A stretch of 29,359 nt of DNA, taken from the IMG/VR virus record IMGVR_UViG_3300028735_000026, positions 1 through 29,359 of that record; one strand, written 5' to 3'. The notes beneath the pieces were generated by a model. It had not been told where the DNA came from. It worked only from the letters and a program-made list of their open reading frames with translations, and did no database searches. This document shows positions 50-17,114 of this stretch, piece by piece; the first letter of the stretch is position 1, and every line of letters starts with the position of its first letter. Position numbers and translations under genes: made by a program. Source of the DNA: a virus.

Positions 50-124
50 GGGCTGGTAGCTCAGCGGTAGAGCAGCGGTCTTTTAAACCGACGGTCGTGG
101 GTTCGATCCCCACCCGGCCCACCA
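50..124 (+). tRNA. tRNA-Lys (anticodon UUU)
   Basis: A full cloverleaf can be folded by eye. The acceptor stem is 50-56 with 114-120 (one G-U pair), the D stem 59-62 with 70-73, the anticodon stem 75-79 with 87-91 (outermost pair G-A, unpaired), the anticodon loop 80-86 with TTT at 82-84, and the T stem 97-101 with 109-113 around loop TTCGATC. Discriminator A121 is followed by an encoded CCA (122-124). It decodes lysine AAA/AAG codons. Its 3' half is shared with the antisense end of the phage integrase gene, so it is the likely integration target and remains intact after integration. Confidence 0.95.
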
Positions 125-1488
125 TAACACCCACTCGTTAAAACCCACGCACGCGAGGCATGCGCCGCGCCCAGCAGCGGCGCGCCAAGCCGCGTCGGGC
201 GGAATGCGATGATTGTGTTTCGCCCGACCCACACCTCGCTCACAAACGCCCGCAATATCACCCGTCGTTCGCTATTGGTTGCTGCTTCGATCAGCGGCCG
301 CACATCCGCCAGTAGCGCGCGGAGCATCCTGCTATCAGCCGCCGCCGGTTCCACCGCCGGTTCGGCCAGCAATACCGTCCGGCGACGTTCATATTCCGCG
401 TCGCTCAACCCGCCATCAGCGTAGGCGCGCGCCAGCCGCCGCAGGGTGTCGGTCGGGTCGATCCGCTTGGCCGGCGCCGGGAGCTCGAGCTGCGCGGACG
501 CCAGTGCAGACAGATCGGCGACATCGGCCAGAGCGATGATCCAGCGTATGGCGAGGTCTTCAACACTCTCCGCCCGGACGATGTTGCGCGTACACACCAC
601 TCCCGGCGTTCCCGTTTCCCGCCCGTTGCGGGTGGTGCTGCATTCATAGGTGCGGCGGTCGCCATCGCGCGCCTGGTGCCACATCGGCGCGCCGCAATCG
701 GCGCACACGGCTAAGCCCGTCAGCAGCGGGTCGTGGCGTGGCGCGTGGCGCGTGGCGCGGCCCCGCCGCTGCCGGCGCACGGCCTGAATGCGCGCCCAGA
801 GATCTGCGTCCCAGATCGCCGGGTGCTTGCCGGGAAACGTCTGGCCGGAACAAACGCTATACCCGGCATAAACCGGGTTATCCAGCATTTCATCAAGCTG
901 GTAGCGGTTCAACCCCAGATGTGTGGCCAGCCGCGCGACGCTCCATTCGCCGGTAGCGTAGAGGTCGCCGGCCTGCCGTACGAGTGGCGCGTGGGCGTTT
1001 GGGACGCCAATGCCATCAACCCGATCATAGCCAAGCGGTACGGCGCCGACAATTCGCCCCTGCCGCGCTTCGTGCATGCGCACGTCGCGCATGCGGTTAC
1101 TCAGCACCCGACTATACTCCGCCGCCAGCACGCCCGACAAAGCGCGCCCCAATGGCTCATTGCTTTCGGTTGCCGAACGCGCGGTGGCTTTGGCGCGCTC
1201 GAGTGTGCGCAAGATGTCGAAATAAACCGCTTCATCGCGCGCCAGCCGGTCATAGTTGTAAACCAACAAAATATCGTACGAACGCGCGTCGGCCAGCGCC
1301 TGGCGCATACTGGGCCGGTTGCTCAAATCGTCGCGGAAGGCGCTCGTATCGTCGTCGATATATTCGCCTGTCACCGCCCCCTGTATGCGTTCGGCGGCGT
1401 CTCGGCACATCGTGCGTTGCAGCTCGATGCTGATGCCGCGCTTCTGGTCGGCGTGTGAACGTCTCAGATAAAGACGAATGCGCAGCAT
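61..1488 (-). CDS. int: Large serine recombinase (phage integrase)
   Basis: Site-specific recombinase for integration and excision. An N-terminal resolvase domain (about residues 1-140) holds the YLRRS motif with likely nucleophile Ser11 and the conserved DRLARD at 80-85. A recombinase domain follows, then a zinc ribbon with Cys262, Cys265, Cys283 and Cys299, and a helical C-terminus; 475 residues is normal for the family. ATG at 1488 is chosen because GGAG lies 5-6 bases upstream; the GTG two codons earlier overlaps that site. It is the last gene of the leftward early operon. The last ~20 residues (GDRTHD...KRPLLYR) are antisense tRNA-Lys, so the protein end depends on which DNA flanks the att site. 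tRNA targeting is far commoner for tyrosine integrases. Confidence 0.93.
   Translation of the reverse strand: MLRIRLYLRRSHADQKRGISIELQRTMCRDAAERIQGAVTGEYIDDDTSAFRDDLSNRPSMRQALADARSYDILLVYNYDRLARDEAVYFDILRTLERAKATARSATESNEPLGRALSGVLAAEYSRVLSNRMRDVRMHEARQGRIVGAVPLGYDRVDGIGVPNAHAPLVRQAGDLYATGEWSVARLATHLGLNRYQLDEMLDNPVYAGYSVCSGQTFPGKHPAIWDADLWARIQAVRRQRRGRATRHAPRHDPLLTGLAVCADCGAPMWHQARDGDRRTYECSTTRNGRETGTPGVVCTRNIVRAESVEDLAIRWIIALADVADLSALASAQLELPAPAKRIDPTDTLRRLARAYADGGLSDAEYERRRTVLLAEPAVEPAAADSRMLRALLADVRPLIEAATNSERRVILRAFVSEVWVGRNTIIAFRPTRLGAPLLGAAHASRAWVLTSGCYGGPGGDRTHDRRFKRPLLYR
80..124. other. Probable prophage attachment junction in the tRNA 3' half
   Basis: The integrase frame runs from phage DNA straight into the antisense strand of the tRNA and stops at 61-63, inside the D arm. 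Phages that use tRNA genes usually carry a copy of the tRNA 3' end so that the gene is rebuilt, so the crossover should lie between about the anticodon loop and the CCA end. The exact core cannot be set from one end; the partner junction is outside this window. Bounds given are therefore approximate. Confidence 0.55.
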
Positions 1489-1496
1489 AACCACTC

Positions 1497-1670: not shown

Positions 1671-2092
1671 TGCGCCGACCTCCGCTGATACACCCCCCGC
1701 GCGATGCGACTGAGCGCGCCGCTACGTACCAGGGTATGCAGAACGGTGCTGATGTAATCCTCGGTATATCCGGTGGATTGTGCAATATCGCGCCAATTGC
1801 GCGCCTGCCCGTCAGCCATCAGATCAAAAACAACCTTGGCCGCGTCCCGTTTTTTTGGCTGCTGCTGAACGGCTTCCAGCGCCGCCACGCGCCCTTCAAA
1901 CAGTTTGTGCAGTTGAAAGTTCGCGGCCTGTAATGCCGCGATTATTTCGATTTTGTCAACCATGACGTTGACCAGGCGCTCGATCTCCGCCTGCTGGCGG
2001 CGTATCTGTTCGCCGAGCGCGCGGATCGTGTCGGCGTCGTTCTGGCGATGCGTCGCGGCGACGATCGATGCGGTAATAGTTTGCGGGTTCAT
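1667..2092 (-). CDS. Coiled-coil protein with C-terminal winged helix
   Basis: This 141-residue protein has two parts. Residues ~20-80 form a long charged helix with heptad pattern (EQIRRQQAEIERL... to AALEAVQQQ), likely a dimerising coiled coil. Residues ~85-138 look like a winged helix-turn-helix (AAKVVFDLMADGQ, then TGYTEDYISTVLHTLVRSGALSRIARGVY), the layout of MarR/GntR-like or replication-associated DNA-binding domains. It overlaps both neighbours by four bases. Plausible roles are transcriptional control within the early operon or helping the integrase; no specific family is recognised. Confidence 0.8.
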   Translation of the reverse strand: MNPQTITASIVAATHRQNDADTIRALGEQIRRQQAEIERLVNVMVDKIEIIAALQAANFQLHKLFEGRVAALEAVQQQPKKRDAAKVVFDLMADGQARNWRDIAQSTGYTEDYISTVLHTLVRSGALSRIARGVYQRRSAQ

Positions 2093-2490
2093 AACGTTTC
2101 CTCGTTCATCAAGACAACATCTTCCCGCGTTAGATAGCCCTGACCTAGCGCGATGAGCGCCGTTGCCCGCGGCTCCACCCAGGCGCGCGCTGTCGGCAGT
2201 CCGTAGCTCGCGGCGTAGTAGCCGGCCACATACGGCACAAACCAGAGCGAGTGGTCAAACATCCATACGCGCTCCATCCTGACCTTGGCCTGAATGCGCA
2301 GGTGGCAACGCTGGCAAAGCGCCGCCAGATTATGCCACGCGCAATTGGCCTTATCACCGTCCAGATGGTGGACGGTCAGCGTGTAGCCGCTGGCCGGGTC
2401 GTGTGCGTGGCCGCAGCGAACGCAACGCCACGTAGCGGCGTCCTTGACCTGGCGGGCGATGGCCGGCCAATCGGCGGGATAATCGTTCAT
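2089..2490 (-). CDS. HNH endonuclease
   Basis: A 133-residue HNH nuclease. It has a zinc-binding pair Cys23-x2-Cys26, the HH-x-DGD core at His41-His42 with Asn54, and a second pair Cys59-x2-Cys62 followed by His63. This is the usual zinc-supported beta-beta-alpha fold cutting DNA. The C-terminal half (about 70-133) is unassigned. ATG at 2490 is chosen because it overlaps the TGA of the preceding small gene (ATGA); the longer GTG start at 2550 would overlap it entirely. Phage HNH proteins often help packaging when next to terminase; this one sits among replication genes, so a role in replication or recombination is as likely. Confidence 0.85.
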   Translation of the reverse strand: MNDYPADWPAIARQVKDAATWRCVRCGHAHDPASGYTLTVHHLDGDKANCAWHNLAALCQRCHLRIQAKVRMERVWMFDHSLWFVPYVAGYYAASYGLPTARAWVEPRATALIALGQGYLTREDVVLMNEETL

Positions 2491-2615
2491 CGTCGTTTTT
2501 CCGGCAGCACTTTCACCCAGGCATAGCGCCCGCCGCCCAGCGACGCCCACACCCAGCCTTTGCCGGGCTTGCCAGGGCAGGGCGGTCGCGGCGGCGAATC
2601 ATAGGTCAGTTTCAT
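2487..2615 (-). CDS. 42-residue basic microprotein
   Basis: A short frame beginning MKLTYDSPPRPP and ending VKVLPEKRR. It starts inside the last codons of the helicase-loader gene in another frame and its TGA overlaps the HNH start (ATGA, 2487-2490). It is rich in proline, glycine and tryptophan (GKGWVWASLGGGRYAWVKVLP), suggesting a small beta-type fold. Support is positional: it exactly fills the gap between two genes with classic coupling. Function unknown. Confidence 0.55.
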   Translation of the reverse strand: MKLTYDSPPRPPCPGKPGKGWVWASLGGGRYAWVKVLPEKRR

Positions 2616-3498
2616 CGTGCCGCTCCAGGCGATAATCGCCGCTGTGGAACTGAACGATTACGCCGCCGGTCATCTGCACCAACCGCGAGTGCGTCGCCTC
2701 GCTAATCGTGCCGCGCGCCAGCAAATCATCCGGCGTCCAGTTCGACGTAATGATCGTCCAGCCGCGCTTGAGCCAACGCGGATCGAAAATCGCATACCAG
2801 GCGTTGCGCAAACTGGCCGGCGGGTTCTCCCGCTGGCCAAGGTCGTCGATAACGGTAAGCCAGGCGCGCTCGCCGGCGGCGTGGGTCATATCGCGCTTGG
2901 TCTCCAAATCGACGCTCCAGTAGCGGTCAATCCAGGCCATCTCGTTACAGAAATACACGCTGCGCGGATAGGCCGCCGCGACATGCGCGACCGCCGCCGC
3001 CAGGTGCGTTTTGCCGCGCCCGCGCCCCGGCGAGTAGAAATACAGACACGCGACCGCGCCGCGATGATAATCCGCGACCGGCAGCGGCAGCGCGGCCTCG
3101 ATCCAGGCGCGCGCCTCGCCTGCCGGATTGTTCTCCGCCGGGTAGCGCCGCCAGTCAAACGTGTCGAACGTCAGATGGCGGATGTGACTGATATCGCTTG
3201 CGTGGCCAATGCGGGTTTCGGTCTGGTACGCGTCGGAGCGCCGGGCAAACGCCTCGTATTTCGCGATTTCAGCCAGATTACAGGCGCAGTCACTCAGAAG
3301 TTTCAGGCGGCGGCCTTTGTACTCCGATCGGCTCTCGCGCACCTCCACGATCTGGTAGCAGGTCGGGCACTGGAGCCGGGTTCCGACCGGCAGATGAGCG
3401 AACGGCCCCACCAGCGCGGTACTGGACTGCTGGTATTGGCTGAGTTGCGCGTCCAGCGACTCCGCCGCCGGCGCGAACGTTTGGCGATAGGTTTTCAT
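2599..3498 (-). CDS. DnaC/IstB-like helicase loader (AAA+ ATPase)
   Basis: A 299-residue AAA+ protein likely to load the host replicative helicase at the phage origin. The N-terminal part has a four-cysteine zinc site (Cys44-x2-Cys47 and Cys71-x-Cys73). The ATPase core has Walker A GRGRGKTH at 158-165, Walker B LTVIDDLG with Asp218-Asp219, and a sensor-1-like IITSN near 250. The start is firm: GAGGA lies six bases upstream of ATG 3498. It directly follows, and overlaps by 209 bases, the replication initiator gene, the usual initiator-loader pair of phages. Confidence 0.9.
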   Translation of the reverse strand: MKTYRQTFAPAAESLDAQLSQYQQSSTALVGPFAHLPVGTRLQCPTCYQIVEVRESRSEYKGRRLKLLSDCACNLAEIAKYEAFARRSDAYQTETRIGHASDISHIRHLTFDTFDWRRYPAENNPAGEARAWIEAALPLPVADYHRGAVACLYFYSPGRGRGKTHLAAAVAHVAAAYPRSVYFCNEMAWIDRYWSVDLETKRDMTHAAGERAWLTVIDDLGQRENPPASLRNAWYAIFDPRWLKRGWTIITSNWTPDDLLARGTISEATHSRLVQMTGGVIVQFHSGDYRLERHDETDL

Positions 3499-10724: not shown

Positions 10725-11080
10725 CCGAAACGACCGCTATGCTGCTGATTATCCTTCAGTATCTGATTGCCCCCGGCGTCGCCGGCGCGCTGGCCTCGGC
10801 GCTGTTTCAGACGATACGCCGGCGCGCCGGCCTGAAAGCGTGGTGCGCACGGCACTACCAGCGGCCTGATGGCTTTGTGCTGTCATGGGCGCTATTTAGT
10901 CCGCGCGGTGCGCTCCTGTCGGCGCTGGCGCTGGCGGCGGCGATCTCCGGCATGGCGTCGGTCGCTGTCGCGGCGCTGAGCGGCGGTGATGTGCTGGCAG
11001 CGCTCGATACCGCGCTGGCGGCCGCGCTGAGCGCGATCTGGTCGCAAATTGCGTATCGCTTTGGGGTGAAGCAATCATGA
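10721..11080 (+). CDS. Putative holin
   Basis: 119 residues starting at GTG 10721. Three hydrophobic segments, ~7-28, ~63-87 and ~91-112, are separated by a basic loop (RRRAGLKAWCARHYQR). Size, membrane segments and position directly before the endolysin (ATGA overlap, 11077-11080) are typical of phage holins, which open the inner membrane at lysis time. No holin family motif is recognised. Confidence 0.65.
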   Translation: MTETTAMLLIILQYLIAPGVAGALASALFQTIRRRAGLKAWCARHYQRPDGFVLSWALFSPRGALLSALALAAAISGMASVAVAALSGGDVLAALDTALAAALSAIWSQIAYRFGVKQS

Positions 11081-11619
11081 CCTTCCATGCCGCCATCCTT
11101 CACTGGCCGGATATCGCCGCGTTTCGCGCGCATCTGGCGCGCCACGATGCGCAGGCCTGCACGCGCTGGCCGCGGCCGCGCGGCGCGGCCACACACGTGC
11201 GCGGCATCGTGCTGCATCACACCTGGCGTCCGACCTGGGAACAGTGGCGCGGCGAACGCACGATGTGGGGCATTCATGGCTACTATGTCGGCCTCGGCTG
11301 GTCATCCGGGCCGCATCTGTTTCTCGCGCCCGATGGATTATGGCAGTTGACGCCGCTCAATCTGCCCGGCACGCACGCCGGGCGCTATAACGCCGACTAT
11401 TACGGCCTGGAAGTCGTGGGCGACTACGACCGCGCGCCGTGGTTGCCGGCGACGCGCCAATGGGTCTACGACCTCATCGCGGCGCTGGAACAGTGGCGCG
11501 GCAGCGCGCTCGACATTCGCGGCCACCGCGAGTGCGGCAGTTTGAAGAGCTGCCCCGGCGCCGCGATTGACCTCGACCTGGTGCGCGCTGATGTCACGCG
11601 GTTGCGGGCAGTCCCGTAG
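11077..11619 (+). CDS. N-acetylmuramoyl-L-alanine amidase (endolysin)
   Basis: A 180-residue Amidase_2-type zinc amidase cleaving the bond between N-acetylmuramic acid and L-alanine of peptidoglycan. The first zinc ligand lies in IVLHHT (His47/48), a GTHAG loop follows, and the C-terminal DIRGHREC...SCPG supplies His150 and Cys159. No cell-wall-binding domain or signal peptide is present, so a holin is required for export. It is preceded by the holin-like gene. The stop lies in the first copy of a repeated element (11613-11646). Confidence 0.9.
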   Translation: MTFHAAILHWPDIAAFRAHLARHDAQACTRWPRPRGAATHVRGIVLHHTWRPTWEQWRGERTMWGIHGYYVGLGWSSGPHLFLAPDGLWQLTPLNLPGTHAGRYNADYYGLEVVGDYDRAPWLPATRQWVYDLIAALEQWRGSALDIRGHRECGSLKSCPGAAIDLDLVRADVTRLRAVP

Positions 11620-12308: not shown

Positions 12309-13598
12309 GTGCGCGACCTGGTGGATGTCACGCCGGATGGCGCGCTGCGGCTGCATATGCACCGCGGCCAGTGGCGCGCCTGGCGCAGCGAGCGCCGGGT
12401 GGTGGCGGTGCTGGCCGGCACGCAGAGCGGCAAGACTTCGTGGGGGCCGCACTGGCTCTACCGCGAGATTCAGCGGCGCGGGCCGGGGGATTATATGGTG
12501 GTGACGCCAACCTTCCAACTGCTTGAGCTGAAGGCGCTGCCGGAGTTTCGGCGCGTCTTTGAAGATTACATGCGCCTGGGCGTGTATACCGGTTCGCCCA
12601 CCCGCCGTTTCACCTTTTCGGTGACGGCGGCGCGGCGCACCTTTGGTGCGCCGCAATCCACTCCGACGCGGGTGTTGTTTGGTTATGCCGCCGAGCCGGA
12701 GAGCCTGGAGAGCGCCACCGCCAAGGCGGCCTGGCTGGACGAGGCCGGTCAGAAGCGCTTCAAGCTGGGCTCCTGGGAAGCCATTCAGCGGCGCTTGAGC
12801 ATTCACCAGGGGCGGACGCTGATTACCACCACGCCCTATGACCTGGGCTGGCTGAAGCAGAAAATCTGGGATCGCTGGCGCGCGGGCGACTCTGAGATCG
12901 AGGTGATTCGCTTCGACAGCACCGAGAACCCGGCCTTCCCCCAGGCGGAGTTTGAGCGCGCCCGGCGCGACCTGCCGGCCTGGAAGTTCGACCTGTTCTA
13001 CCGCGCGATCTTTACCCGCCCTGCCGGCCTGATTTACGACTGCTTCGATATGAATGCTCACGTCGTGCCGCGCTTCGCCATTCCGGCGCACTGGCCGCGC
13101 TTCCTGGGGCTGGACTTCGGCGGGGTGCATACGGCGGGGTTGTTCCTGGCGCGCGAGCCGGGGACGAACCGCCTCTACGCCTATCGCGAGTATCTGGCGG
13201 GCGGGCGCACCGCCAAAGAGCATGCGACGGCGCTGCGCGAGGGCGAACCAATGATCCCGACCTGCGTCGGCGGTTCGGCGTCGGAGGGGCAGTTTCGCGC
13301 GGAGTTTCGCGCCGCCGGCGTGCCGGTGCGCGAGCCGGCGGTGAGCGCGATTGAGATCGGCATTGACCGGTTGTATGGCCTGATCAAGCGCGGTGCGCTG
13401 CTGGTGTTCGATGATCTGGCGCGCCTGCTGGAAGAGCTGCAAACCTACAGCCGTGAGCTGGACGCTGCAGGCGAGCCGACCGAAGCGATTGAGGATCAGC
13501 ACAGCTTTCATATGCTTGACGCGGCGCGCTATATCGCCGGCTGGCTCGAACAGCCGCGCGGCTCGCGCCAGTCGAATTATCTCGCGGGGGACGCATGA
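12309..13598 (+). CDS. terL: Terminase large subunit
   Basis: The packaging motor: ATPase plus nuclease. Walker A is GTQSGKT at 37-43, Walker B AAWLDEAG with Asp144-Glu145, and the coupling motif TTTPYD near 173-178. The RNase H-like nuclease has GLDFGG with Asp269 and HMLDAARYI with Asp404. Where many families have GDP(A/S) as the middle nuclease motif this one reads VGGSASEGQF, a form I believe is normal for its subfamily. 429 residues is usual. The start is GTG 12309, immediately after the TGA of terS. Confidence 0.93.
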   Translation: MRDLVDVTPDGALRLHMHRGQWRAWRSERRVVAVLAGTQSGKTSWGPHWLYREIQRRGPGDYMVVTPTFQLLELKALPEFRRVFEDYMRLGVYTGSPTRRFTFSVTAARRTFGAPQSTPTRVLFGYAAEPESLESATAKAAWLDEAGQKRFKLGSWEAIQRRLSIHQGRTLITTTPYDLGWLKQKIWDRWRAGDSEIEVIRFDSTENPAFPQAEFERARRDLPAWKFDLFYRAIFTRPAGLIYDCFDMNAHVVPRFAIPAHWPRFLGLDFGGVHTAGLFLAREPGTNRLYAYREYLAGGRTAKEHATALREGEPMIPTCVGGSASEGQFRAEFRAAGVPVREPAVSAIEIGIDRLYGLIKRGALLVFDDLARLLEELQTYSRELDAAGEPTEAIEDQHSFHMLDAARYIAGWLEQPRGSRQSNYLAGDA

Positions 13599-14971
13599 AT
13601 GATGACGCCATCGCCCAGCGCCGCGCCGCGGCGCAACCCGACGCCGCGCAGGCGTCGGCGTTTCGCGCCTACGCGCGCGGCCGCCAGCGCGGCACGCTTA
13701 CCAGCGGCCAGCAGCGTATTCTGCGCGGCCTGCTGGGCCACCTGTTCTGTGACAATGTCTGCCATATGGCGCTCAGCCGGGTCGCGGCGCGCGTGAGCCT
13801 GGCGCGGTTTACCATTGATGGCGACGACGCCGCGACGGCGGCGCTGGAAACCTGGCTGCGCGCCTGGTGGGTGCTGAATCAGTTTGAGCGGCTGAGCGCG
13901 GAGGTGCAGTATGCCGCGCTGCGCGACGGCAATCACGGCGTGGCGCTGGAGTGGCGCGATGGGCGGGTGGTCTGCACCCGCGAGCCCTGGTGGAATGGGA
14001 CCCACGGGCTGTGGGTGGCCTATGACGACCTGGGCCGGCCCGAGTACGCGGTGAAAGAATGGGAGCGCAAGCGCACGGTCTGGTATCCTGACCGGATTGA
14101 GCGCTACCAGTTGAGCGGTGATGGCTGGCAGCCGCGCCGGCTGGATGGCGACGCGAGCTGGCCGGTTCCCTGGCGCGACGCGCGCGGCGCGCCGCTGGGA
14201 CTGCCGGTGGTGCATATCGCGGCGTTCGACCGCCCGAATGACGGCGACGCGCCCGGCGATCCCTTGCCGTACTACGGGATGAGCCTGCTGGACGGCGGCG
14301 TGCTGGGGCTGCAAGACGAAATCAATGATGTGCAGCGCGATCTCTCGGCGGCGGCGCGCTTCGCCGGCTACCAGATGCTCTACGGCACCGGCATTCAGCC
14401 GGTGTATGACGAAGCCGGCAATGAGCAGCCGATTATCGTCGAGCCGGGGGCGTTCTTCCGCGACCCATCCGCCGACGCGCGGTTCGGCGCGCTGCCGGCG
14501 GGCAGCCTGGCGGAACTGGAACGCACCCTGACCGTGAAGCTCCAGGCGGTGAGCCGGATGACCGGCGTGCCGCAACATTTGATTGCCGGCGACTGGCCCA
14601 GCGGCGAGGCGCTGCTGCGCGCCGAACAACCGCTGGTGGATAAGGCGACGACGCTGGCCGGCGCGATTGGCCCGGCCTGGGCGAGTCTGGCGCATAAGGC
14701 GACGCGCCTGGCGAATGTGTTTGGCGGCGCGGGTCTGGATGAGACGCTGCTGATTAGCGCGGTGTTCGACCCGGTGGATCGGCGCGACCCGTTGACCCTG
14801 GCGCTGATTGCCGAAAAGCGCGCGCCGTTCGTCAGCCGGCGCGAAACGCTGCGCACCCTGGGGTATGCGCCGCGCGAGCAGGATCGCATTCTGGCAGAAA
14901 TGGATGACGACCGCGCGCAAAGCGCCAGCCTGGGGCAGACCATGCTGGATAATTTCAATAGCGGCGTATGA
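13595..14971 (+). CDS. Portal protein
   Basis: A 458-residue portal of the SPP1 gp6-like superfamily, forming the ring through which DNA is packaged and ejected. Typical landmarks are the N-terminal helical part with ALSRVAARVSL, the beta-rich wing (EYAVKEWERKRTVWYPDRIERY), the stem region LQDEINDVQRDLSAAARF, and SRMTGVPQHLIAG-WPSGEAL, a portal hallmark near the crown. It overlaps terL by four bases and the MuF gene by four bases, as usual for the packaging-portal-MuF order. Confidence 0.92.
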   Translation: MNDDAIAQRRAAAQPDAAQASAFRAYARGRQRGTLTSGQQRILRGLLGHLFCDNVCHMALSRVAARVSLARFTIDGDDAATAALETWLRAWWVLNQFERLSAEVQYAALRDGNHGVALEWRDGRVVCTREPWWNGTHGLWVAYDDLGRPEYAVKEWERKRTVWYPDRIERYQLSGDGWQPRRLDGDASWPVPWRDARGAPLGLPVVHIAAFDRPNDGDAPGDPLPYYGMSLLDGGVLGLQDEINDVQRDLSAAARFAGYQMLYGTGIQPVYDEAGNEQPIIVEPGAFFRDPSADARFGALPAGSLAELERTLTVKLQAVSRMTGVPQHLIAGDWPSGEALLRAEQPLVDKATTLAGAIGPAWASLAHKATRLANVFGGAGLDETLLISAVFDPVDRRDPLTLALIAEKRAPFVSRRETLRTLGYAPREQDRILAEMDDDRAQSASLGQTMLDNFNSGV

Positions 14972-16842
14972 GCGACACCGTTGTTTCACAACTGGATCGC
15001 GCCCTGGCCGCGGCGCGCGCGGCGCTGCTGCAACGTGACGCCGCGGCGCTGCGCCGGCTAATGGCGGCCTATGCCGGCGTGGAGGCGCGGGTGCAGGCGC
15101 GCGTGGCCGCGCTGACCGCCGACATTGACGCGGCGCGCGCGGCGGGCGAAACGGTGAAGCCCTCCTGGCTGATGGAGCGCGACCGCCTGACGACGCTGCG
15201 CCGCCAGATTATCGCCGAGTGGGCGCGCTATGCCGAGCAGGCGCGCGCGGTGATCACCGCCACGCAGCGCGCCGCACTCGATGCCGCAACCCGCGAGGCC
15301 GCCCAGTTGACCCAGGCCGCGCTTGACGATGCCGGGATGCGCGGCGCGGCGGATGTGGCGCGGCTGAATACGCGCGCGGTGGAAGAAGTGGTGGGCGTGC
15401 TGGCGGATGGCTCGCCGCTGGCGGAACTGCTGGCGCGCGTGGGCGCGCAGGCCGCCGCCGATGTGAGCGCGGCGCTGACTCACGCGGTGGCCACTGGGCG
15501 CAACCCGCGCCAGACCGCCAGAGATATTCGCGCGGCGCTGGGCGGCGGGTTGCATCGGGCGCTGCGCATCGCGCGCACCGAGCACCTGCGCGCCTACCGT
15601 AACGCCAGTCTGCAAACCTACCAGGCGAACGCCGACATTCTGCGCGGCTGGCAGTGGCGCGCGTCGCCCAGCCGGCGCACCTGCCCGGTCTGCCTGGCGA
15701 TGGACGGGCGTGAGTTCGGCCTGAACGAACCGTTCGCGAGCCACATTTCGTGTAGGTGTACTCCCGTACCCCTATTAAAAGACCGTGCCTTGCCGCCGCG
15801 CGAAACCGGCGCGGCGTGGTTCGCCCGCCAGCCCGAAGCCGCGCAGCGCGCCATACTGGGGCCGGCCAAGTTCGATCTGTACCAGCGCGGGCGTATTACC
15901 CTGAACGACCTGGTGGGCGTGCGCGATGATCCGCGCTGGGGGCGAGCGGTGTACGAGCGCGGGGTGGGGGAGTTGGAGAGCAACCGCGACAAGCCAGCGG
16001 GCCGTCCAACCCAAGCCCCGCCCAAGCCGCCAGCGACAACCCCGGCGGCATCCGCGCGCGAACGTTTAGAGCATGTCGCGAAGCGTACGAAAGCGAAGCA
16101 GGCCGACCTGAAACAAGATATCGCGGCGTTGGTGCAAGAGCGCGATGAACTGGAGCGCACGAAATTCGTTGCGCCAACGCAAGCCGAGCGTACCGCCGCG
16201 CGCGTGAGGCTCAATGAGGTGAAGACGCGGCTGCAACGCGCGCGCGAACACTACGATAAGCTGGACGCCGAATACCCTGAACTGCTGCGCGAACAACTGT
16301 ACACCCGCAACCCTGCCCGCGTGCAGGCGTTTATCACACAAGGGGTTCCCGACACGCAGCGCCCCGAGATTGAAAAGGCGATCCGCGCCTTTGAGCGCAT
16401 GGTGGAACATAAAACGACGCAATTGACGGTTGAAACAACTGTCAATAACTCGTATTATGTAGTTGGGACAAATGCGTTTCGGTTAAGAAATACCGCCGAT
16501 GCAGCCACTGTTATTCACGAGATGGGGCACTGGCTCGAAGATATCAACCCTACCGTGCGAGACGCGGCGCGAGCATTCCTGGATCGCCGCACGGCGGGCG
16601 AGAAAGATATCCCACTGTATCAATATAATCCGAAATACCTGAACGAGCCCAAGAAGGTGACGCGGCCGGATCAGTTTCGCGATTATTATGTCGGGCGGCA
16701 GTATCGCAATGCCGCCGGGGAATACACGGGAACCGAAGTGCTTTCAATGGGACTGGAATGGTTTTATTCTGACCCGCTTGGGTTTGCCCGTGACGACCCG
16801 GACATGTTCGATTTTATCTATACGATTGTGAGAATGCCATGA
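14968..16842 (+). CDS. MuF-type minor head protein fused to a zincin metallopeptidase domain
   Basis: 624 residues. The first ~290 are a MuF/SPP1 gp7-like minor head protein, with the cysteine signature Cys239-x2-Cys242...His259-x2-Cys262-x-Cys264 (TCPVCLAMDGREF; SHISCRC). A proline-rich linker (~338-360) and a charged coiled coil (~362-440) lead to a C-terminal zincin-like domain (~470-624) with VIHEMGHWLE: zinc ligands His517 and His521, catalytic Glu518, and probable third ligand Glu590 in TEVLSMGLE. The DNA coding for that last domain is markedly AT-richer than its surroundings (one line of 60 has 24 G+C; a line in the MuF part has 47). MuF proteins with swapped C-terminal enzymes are known phage polymorphic toxins. 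Alternatively, the peptidase could work in head maturation, as no separate maturation protease is present. Confidence 0.85.
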   Translation: MSDTVVSQLDRALAAARAALLQRDAAALRRLMAAYAGVEARVQARVAALTADIDAARAAGETVKPSWLMERDRLTTLRRQIIAEWARYAEQARAVITATQRAALDAATREAAQLTQAALDDAGMRGAADVARLNTRAVEEVVGVLADGSPLAELLARVGAQAAADVSAALTHAVATGRNPRQTARDIRAALGGGLHRALRIARTEHLRAYRNASLQTYQANADILRGWQWRASPSRRTCPVCLAMDGREFGLNEPFASHISCRCTPVPLLKDRALPPRETGAAWFARQPEAAQRAILGPAKFDLYQRGRITLNDLVGVRDDPRWGRAVYERGVGELESNRDKPAGRPTQAPPKPPATTPAASARERLEHVAKRTKAKQADLKQDIAALVQERDELERTKFVAPTQAERTAARVRLNEVKTRLQRAREHYDKLDAEYPELLREQLYTRNPARVQAFITQGVPDTQRPEIEKAIRAFERMVEHKTTQLTVETTVNNSYYVVGTNAFRLRNTADAATVIHEMGHWLEDINPTVRDAARAFLDRRTAGEKDIPLYQYNPKYLNEPKKVTRPDQFRDYYVGRQYRNAAGEYTGTEVLSMGLEWFYSDPLGFARDDPDMFDFIYTIVRMP

Positions 16843-17114
16843 CTCAAACTGTCATTCGTATAAAAGAGCGTTATGAAGCTACATTTCACTACGGCAAATG
16901 GGTTCCCGCCAAAAATTACCGATCTGTTGATGATCGGTATGATTGGGAGATTGAAAAATTAAACTATAATCTGCGCGAATCCCCTATCGCCCGGCATGAT
17001 TACTGGACTGAACAAATAGCGGTTGAACGTGCAAAACAAATACTGCCTGAGCAAGTAGAGGTTTTGTCTCTTACAGAAGAGCCAGGCCCCGCGCCGGAAG
17101 GGGCGCTGGAATAG
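16839..17114 (+). CDS. AT-rich follower gene; candidate immunity protein
   Basis: A 91-residue protein (MTQTVIRIKERYEATFHYGKWV start), acidic, soluble, with mixed strand and helix and no known family. Its ATG overlaps the MuF-zincin stop (ATGA, 16839-16842). Its DNA is 35-48% G+C in hand-counted lines, like the zincin-coding part and unlike the head genes around it, so the two look as if they arrived as one cassette. In MuF polymorphic toxin loci the gene after the toxin domain usually encodes immunity, hence the suggestion. The last ~15 codons return to GC-rich DNA. Confidence 0.65.
   Translation: MTQTVIRIKERYEATFHYGKWVPAKNYRSVDDRYDWEIEKLNYNLRESPIARHDYWTEQIAVERAKQILPEQVEVLSLTEEPGPAPEGALE

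What the first reader, a model, noticed from the sequence alone, without database searches (positions are those of the whole stretch)
14968..17114. MuF head protein with a zincin C-terminus and an AT-rich partner gene: a candidate phage-delivered toxin and immunity pair
The MuF part is a standard GC-rich head gene, but from about 16390 the DNA drops to ~35-48% G+C in hand-counted lines (up to 78% in the MuF part). That segment encodes an HEMGH zincin domain, and the low G+C continues across the stop into a 91-residue gene with a four-base overlap. MuF proteins carrying exchangeable C-terminal toxins followed by immunity genes are established for temperate phages; a metallopeptidase version with this small partner would be little described. 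The linker plus coiled coil before the zincin looks like a swap joint. The main alternative is a peptidase for capsid or ejection processing, since no separate prohead protease is seen.
Basis: partly seen in the sequence, partly recalled or inferred. Interest (0 to 1): 0.75.

Follow-up and report, generated by a model that had tools for sequence, protein, structure and literature searches.

The report
Phage capsid-borne protease with matching small partner
This phage carries a zinc protease welded to a capsid protein and, overlapping it, a small partner gene; relatives show that the two travel as one cassette and that most partners end in the same few amino acids, which suggests a built-in inhibitor, although neither a toxic effect nor inhibition has been shown.

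Summary
Window 14968-16842 encodes a 624-residue MuF head protein ending in an HEMGH (517-521) zincin. A 91-residue gene (16839-17114) overlaps its stop by four bases. G+C falls from 72% (MuF) to 51% (zincin) to 46% (follower).

The zincin family has no Pfam, NCBIfam or PDB sequence match but is widespread in phages. Zincin plus follower behave as one exchangeable cassette. A MuF gene 72% identical to the window's stops in the linker and lacks both. The same zincin sits on portal, pyrophosphatase-domain and P1 DdrB-type proteins. In 93 diverged zincin genes, 81 have a 55-135-residue gene right behind them, against 79 of 285 other long genes in the same loci.

New here: 47 of these 81 followers end in [I/V/L][Y/F]-COOH, against 0 of 79 control genes. 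Among 43 followers with no mutual BLAST match, 24 still do. This suggests a C-terminal tail that binds the protease.

The likeliest reading is a virion-delivered protease with a cognate inhibitor/immunity protein. The window's own follower is divergent: it ends GALE, and its kinship rests on position and predicted fold. Toxicity, inhibition and docking are untested. MuF toxins with metallopeptidases were already predicted in 2017, so this is a new variant of a known kind.

The parts
14968..16842 (+). MuF head protein with C-terminal zincin, 624 aa
   Evidence: ORF; PF04233 E 8.7e-17; phrog_115 minor head protein and phrog_33618
15460..15762 (+). MuF domain, residues 165-265
   Evidence: Pfam PF04233
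15988..16056 (+). Pro/Thr/Ala-rich linker; the swap joint (a 72%-identical MuF in L156 ends inside the matching linker)
   Evidence: sequence; L156 protein ends ...RAPRPPPATP*
16057..16389 (+). helical, coiled-coil-like spacer before the zincin (boundaries approximate)
   Evidence: sequence; G+C 0.609
16390..16839 (+). zincin domain, residues 475-624, at the extreme C-terminus
   Evidence: relatives by tblastn and profile; alignment A1 with invariant H43 E44 H47 Y100 Y105 E116
16516..16530 (+). HEMGH zinc-binding/catalytic motif, residues 517-521 (Glu518)
16735..16737 (+). Glu590, probable third zinc ligand (TEVLSMG motif)
   Evidence: invariant column
16839..17114 (+). follower gene, 91 aa; candidate inhibitor/immunity protein; predicted beta-beta-beta-alpha-alpha-beta core, then an unstructured tail ending PAPEGALE
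   Evidence: ORF; AlphaFold2 mean pLDDT 81.8; position as in 81 of 93 relatives
16839..16842 (+). ATGA start/stop overlap, suggests translational coupling
   Evidence: sequence; gap -4 in 34 and -4..+1 in 63 of 81 pairs

Best explanation
The zincin is an enzymatic cargo domain carried into the virion on a head protein (MuF here; portal or internal proteins in relatives) and ejected into the next host with the DNA, where it would cleave one or more host proteins. The overlapping follower is its cognate inhibitor. It is made by coupled translation beside the protease and binds the zincin, in most relatives probably through a short C-terminal tail ([I/V]-Y-COOH) that may lie in the substrate cleft like a cleavage product. 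The producing cell, the prophage host and the phage's own assembly proteins are thereby spared until delivery. Shown here: the cassette, its exchange between carriers, the linkage of the two genes, and the conserved tail in relatives. Inferred: packaging, ejection, proteolysis, inhibition and tail docking. The window's follower has GALE instead of a phi-Y end, so its binding mode may differ.
For: (1) Exchange: a MuF 72% identical over 220 aa (L156) ends in the linker and lacks both zincin and follower; L157/L158 are short MuF; L159 has a different HEVGH metallopeptidase. Close MuF genes in Microcystis Mae-JY09, Arthrobacter TripleJ and Glutamicibacter Montesquieu are short. (2) Same zincin on other carriers: Mu portal (L076), Phage_portal (L078), InPase (L061), DUF7178 (L055), P1-type DdrB; 51 of 93 carriers are MuF. 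(3) Linkage: 81 of 93 diverged zincin genes have a small gene within -15..+40 of the stop, against 79 of 285 other long ORFs in the same loci (Fisher p 1e-24). In the reverse search, all nine follower loci are preceded by a zincin, no orphans. (4) Tail: 47 of 81 followers end [IVL][YF], 0 of 79 controls (p 1e-18); 24 of 43 mutually BLAST-unrelated followers keep it. (5) The window phage has a serine integrase. (6) MuF-carried toxins with adjacent immunity genes are experimentally shown for Bxa.
Against: No toxicity, proteolysis or binding was tested. P1 hxr (the follower of ddrB) and ddrB are both nonessential in plaque assays, so a lethal, follower-dependent toxin is not evident there. Only about a third of 37 scanned records (fragments) show an integrase, so protection of lysogens cannot be the whole story. 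The window's follower is not recovered by an HMM of the others, hhalign gives 2.7% probability, and it ends in Glu.
Confidence: 0.6

Rival explanations
1. The zincin is a processing peptidase that cuts its own carrier (or neighbouring virion proteins) to release it during assembly or after ejection, as proposed for polyvalent proteins and P1 DdrB; the follower is a regulator or chaperone that delays the cut.
For: P1 DdrB, whose C-terminal MPTase is a weak relative (tblastn E 1e-2), is processed to 76 kDa before packaging, and autoproteolysis was proposed (PMC5512222). The cassette also occurs on large phages without a detected integrase.
Against: Closest MuF genes do without it, so it is not needed for head maturation. 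No enrichment of tail-like sites in the 160 residues before the zincin (10 found, 11.7 expected from shuffles). The zincin is exchanged as a C-terminal end domain, the usual place of cargo.
Confidence: 0.27
2. The follower is an ordinary small head or connector gene that happens to lie behind MuF; the zincin has nothing to do with it.
For: Small genes are common in head modules: 79 of 285 control genes have one.
Against: The follower goes with the zincin on non-MuF carriers too (32 of 42), is missing with it in L156, and its tail motif is absent from control small genes (0 of 79).
Confidence: 0.06
3. The zincin is a non-lethal anti-defence or host-takeover effector (as Dar proteins are in P1), and the follower only prevents damage to phage or host proteins before packaging.
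For: DdrB belongs to the co-ejected Dar proteins of P1 (PMC12810830); hxr knock-down does not harm P1 plaque formation (PMC10695390); many carriers lack a detected integrase.
Against: Overlaps with the best explanation and differs mainly in the target and strength of the effect; no host target is known.
Confidence: 0.35

Closest known systems
MuF polymorphic toxins of temperate phages (Jamet et al. 2017, PMC5576092; Bxa, PMC11699363; Apk2)
   Same: MuF N-terminus behind the portal gene, exchangeable C-terminal enzyme, small downstream gene, integrase in the window; 20% of the 191 predicted MuF toxins there had a metallopeptidase domain
   Different: No metallopeptidase member has been tested as far as found; followers here share a C-terminal phi-Y tail; the same zincin-follower cassette also sits on portal and internal proteins and in phages with no detected integrase; toxicity not shown
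Polyvalent-protein MPTases, including phage P1 DdrB (Iyer et al. 2017, PMC5512222)
   Same: HExxH...E zincin at the C-terminus of proteins delivered by phages; P1 DdrB shows weak direct similarity and is followed by hxr, whose product ends DQIVY
   Different: Those are explained as self-processing domains; the passages read do not describe a cognate follower with a conserved tail
M34-type metallopeptidase fold (Pro-Pro endopeptidase PPEP-1/Zmp1; lethal-factor catalytic domain)
   Same: Closest solved folds in the VIA-align second look (Z 6.6 and 7.4, 110-117 residues aligned)
   Different: Z under 8, Foldseek E-value not significant, no significant sequence match; similarity of fold only
Tail-in-active-site protease inhibitors such as plant and leech carboxypeptidase inhibitors (own knowledge)
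   Same: A free C-terminus is the conserved element, as expected if the carboxylate lies at the zinc
   Different: Unrelated proteins; docking is not shown here

Membership tests
MuF polymorphic toxin | MuF domain at the N-terminus, gene directly behind the portal gene | tested here: met
   PF04233 E 8.7e-17; portal 13595-14971 (phrog_104) overlaps the start of this gene
MuF polymorphic toxin | C-terminal domain varies among related MuF proteins | tested here: met
   72%-identical MuF without zincin (L156), 39% short MuF (L157, L158), 41% MuF with another metallopeptidase (L159)
MuF polymorphic toxin | C-terminal domain shared with other carrier families | tested here: met
   same zincin on portal, InPase and DUF7178 proteins and P1-like DdrB
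MuF polymorphic toxin | small gene (<150 aa) directly downstream | tested here: met
   91 aa, 4-base overlap; 49 of 51 MuF-zincin relatives
MuF polymorphic toxin | encoded by a temperate phage | tested here: met
   serine integrase at 61-1494 (phrog_95 E 2e-69; PF07508); not detected in many relatives
MuF polymorphic toxin | C-terminal domain is toxic to bacteria and the follower neutralises it | not testable with these tools
   needs expression experiments
Polyvalent-protein MPTase | zincin with HExxH and a downstream Glu ligand | tested here: met
   invariant H, E, H and E in 20 sequences including P1 DdrB
Polyvalent-protein MPTase | catalyses self-processing of the carrier | not testable with these tools
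   only an indirect look for internal tail-like sites, no enrichment
M34 metallopeptidase fold | same fold and catalytic Tyr/Glu arrangement | tested here: inconclusive
   VIA-align Z 7.4 and 6.6; Foldseek not significant; two invariant Tyr before the Glu ligand
phi-Y-tailed follower family (defined here) | position behind the zincin, length, predicted core | tested here: met
   predicted element order as in the L150 follower (the alignments share rows, so the two models are not fully independent)
phi-Y-tailed follower family (defined here) | C-terminus [I/V/L][Y/F] | tested here: not met
   window follower ends GALE
phi-Y-tailed follower family (defined here) | sequence match to the family profile | tested here: not met
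   not found by HMM; hhalign probability 2.7%

The most novel reading that the evidence does not exclude
A mobile protease-plus-plug cassette: a family of small phage proteins whose one constant feature is a free C-terminal [I/V]-Y acts as product-mimic inhibitors of a virion-delivered zincin, and this pair is shuffled between MuF, portal and internal head proteins, including P1 DdrB-Hxr.
Probability: 0.35. Interest if true: 0.78.

Novelty: new variant of a known kind. Interest (0 to 1): 0.6.

Why it matters
It would show that a large, uncurated set of phages injects a protease on capsid, portal or internal head proteins and controls it with a dedicated inhibitor, which gives proteins such as P1 DdrB and Hxr a testable joint function. 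The constant C-terminal tail across otherwise unrecognisable followers is a direct, simple handle: removing or masking two residues should release the protease. It would also add the first tested peptidase to the MuF toxins, where as far as found only an ADP-ribosyltransferase (Bxa) and (p)ppApp synthetases (Apk2) have been characterised.

Tried and rejected
Capsid-maturation protease as the main role: rejected because close MuF relatives lack the zincin. Follower as an ordinary small head gene: rejected by linkage and tail statistics. Homologues of the window's own follower: none in the phages collection or IMG/VR; none of 40 followers matches Pfam, the only NCBIfam hit is one at E 0.018, and only five hit PHROGs, all of unknown function. 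Loci L006/L007 are unrelated zincins and were left out. Full zincin alignment A1 was too diverse for a collection scan; two sub-alignments were used instead. Auto-cleavage signal: no enrichment of tail-like motifs before the zincin. Fold of the follower: no significant Foldseek match and VIA-align Z at most 3.3, which shows nothing either way. Number of carrier swaps on a zincin tree: 16 by parsimony, but starred branches force only one, so no count is claimed. Tail docking could not be judged because model coordinates are not released.

Full report
Observation. The window is a 29359-base IMG/VR record. ORF 14968-16842 codes for 624 residues: MuF domain 165-265 (PF04233, E 8.7e-17), a Pro-rich linker, a helical spacer, and a C-terminal zincin with HEMGH at 517-521. 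A 91-residue gene starts at 16839 and shares ATGA with the stop. G+C falls from 0.721 to 0.609, 0.507 and 0.459 across MuF, spacer, zincin and follower, and GC3 from 0.83 to 0.38; this 722-base stretch is the lowest in the window. In relatives the zincin part is also lower in G+C than its carrier (69 of 77) and lower in GC3 for 37 of 47 MuF carriers. Part of the plain G+C difference may reflect residue make-up.

The zincin family. It has no Pfam family in the window protein and no convincing PDB sequence match. PHROG 33618 (unknown function) matches residues 370-622 at E 3.8e-31, and PHROG 19443 (minor head protein) matches both the MuF and zincin parts. Relatives were found in Planktothrix PaV-LD, Flavobacterium pippi8-1, Bacillus BboS-125 and BpsS-36, Streptococcus Javan prophages, Lactococcus 62503, 157-kb Vibrio phages, P1 DdrB (weak) and several plasmids. 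Two profile scans of viral contigs gave 132 loci. Twenty aligned domains keep H43, E44, H47, Y100, Y105 and E116 without exception.

Cassette behaviour. L156 encodes a MuF 72% identical to the window's over 220 residues. It stops at ...RAPRPPPATP, in the linker; what follows leads into a scaffold-like gene, with neither zincin nor follower (the contig ends 289 bases after the stop). L157/L158 are short MuF, and L159 has a different metallopeptidase. The closest annotated phages (Mae-JY09, TripleJ, D_HF5_3, Montesquieu) have short MuF genes with no small follower. In the other direction the zincin sits on Portal_Mu (L076), Phage_portal (L078), InPase (L061), DUF7178 (L055) and DdrB-type proteins. 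By an iterated profile, 51 of 93 diverged carriers are MuF. The tree-based number of carrier changes is not robust.

The follower. Of 93 zincin genes less than 60% identical to each other, 81 have a gene of 55-135 residues starting -15 to +40 from the stop, 63 of them within -4 to +1. Among 285 other long ORFs of the same loci 79 do (p 1e-24). Nine loci found by follower sequence alone are all preceded by a zincin, three of them not among the earlier loci. Followers are mostly unrecognisable to each other by sequence, yet 47 of 81 end in [IVL][YF] and 0 of 79 control genes do (p 1e-18). In 43 followers without mutual BLASTP matches 24 still do. Typical ends are PGRVY, KGRIY, PDRVY, EDVIY and DQIVY (P1 Hxr). 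No Pfam, NCBIfam or solved-structure name fits.

Structure. AlphaFold2 of a natural in-frame read-through pair (L150 zincin, stop read as Gln, follower; 35 rows) gave mean pLDDT 83.7, with both cores mostly above 90 and the tail falling to 65. The zincin part is nearest to M34-type folds (Z 7.4 and 6.6), below the level that is safe by itself. The window follower folds at pLDDT 81.8 with the order of strands and helices seen in the L150 follower and a loose tail from residue 79; the two alignments share rows, so this is supportive and not independent. Profile methods do not link it to the others significantly (pairwise z up to 5.8), and its end is GALE. For the window itself the pairing therefore rests mainly on position, overlap, length and fold.

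Mechanism. The anatomy fits an enzymatic cargo on a virion protein with a co-translated cognate inhibitor. MuF-carried Bxa has experimentally shown adjacent immunity proteins. The rival of self-processing comes from P1 DdrB; nothing here excludes it, but the domain is dispensable among close MuF relatives and no tail-like site is enriched before the zincin. Against a simple lethal toxin: hxr and ddrB are nonessential in P1 and an integrase was detected in only about a third of 37 records, many of them fragments. An anti-defence or takeover role with the inhibitor protecting the producing cell is therefore close behind. The confidences given for explanations overlap and do not sum to one.

Literature. 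Jamet 2017 reported 191 putative MuF toxins, 20% with a metallopeptidase domain; 89.4% of the 191 were followed by an ORF under 150 aa, against 25.5% of short MuF. Iyer 2017 described MPTases of polyvalent proteins. No paper found describes the shared follower tail, but the library covers open-licence papers only, and supplements could not be read.

Limits. The window's host is unknown; packaging, ejection, proteolysis, inhibition and toxicity are untested; ORF-based gene calls were used for the statistics.

Noticed in passing
61-1494 (-): Large serine recombinase/integrase (phrog_95 E 2e-69; PF07508 match), so the phage is probably temperate.
   Followed up: yes
2089-2550 (-) and 2599-3498 (-): HNH endonuclease and DnaC-like helicase loader.
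   Followed up: no
11077-11619 (+): Endolysin/amidase-like gene just upstream of the packaging genes.
   Followed up: no
L010 (Bacillus phage vB_BboS-125), 4351-4957: MuF-zincin gene without a full follower; only a 47-aa ORF ending EGAIV lies 125 bases downstream, perhaps a decayed or mis-assembled follower.
   Followed up: partly
L159, 4629-6099: MuF protein 41% identical to the window's that carries a different metallopeptidase motif (HEVGHYLD) at its C-terminus; contig ends inside it.
   Followed up: no
L008, L027, L030 (PaV-LD-like and related loci): Tandem zincin genes, in some loci with one follower after two of them; PaV-LD ORF081, annotated as a virion structural protein, is itself a zincin protein.
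   Followed up: partly
L016, L021 (Rhodococcus plasmids): Zincin genes followed at about 85 bases by 77-79 aa genes with a hydrophobic, membrane-like helix and no phi-Y tail: a possible different kind of partner.
   Followed up: no
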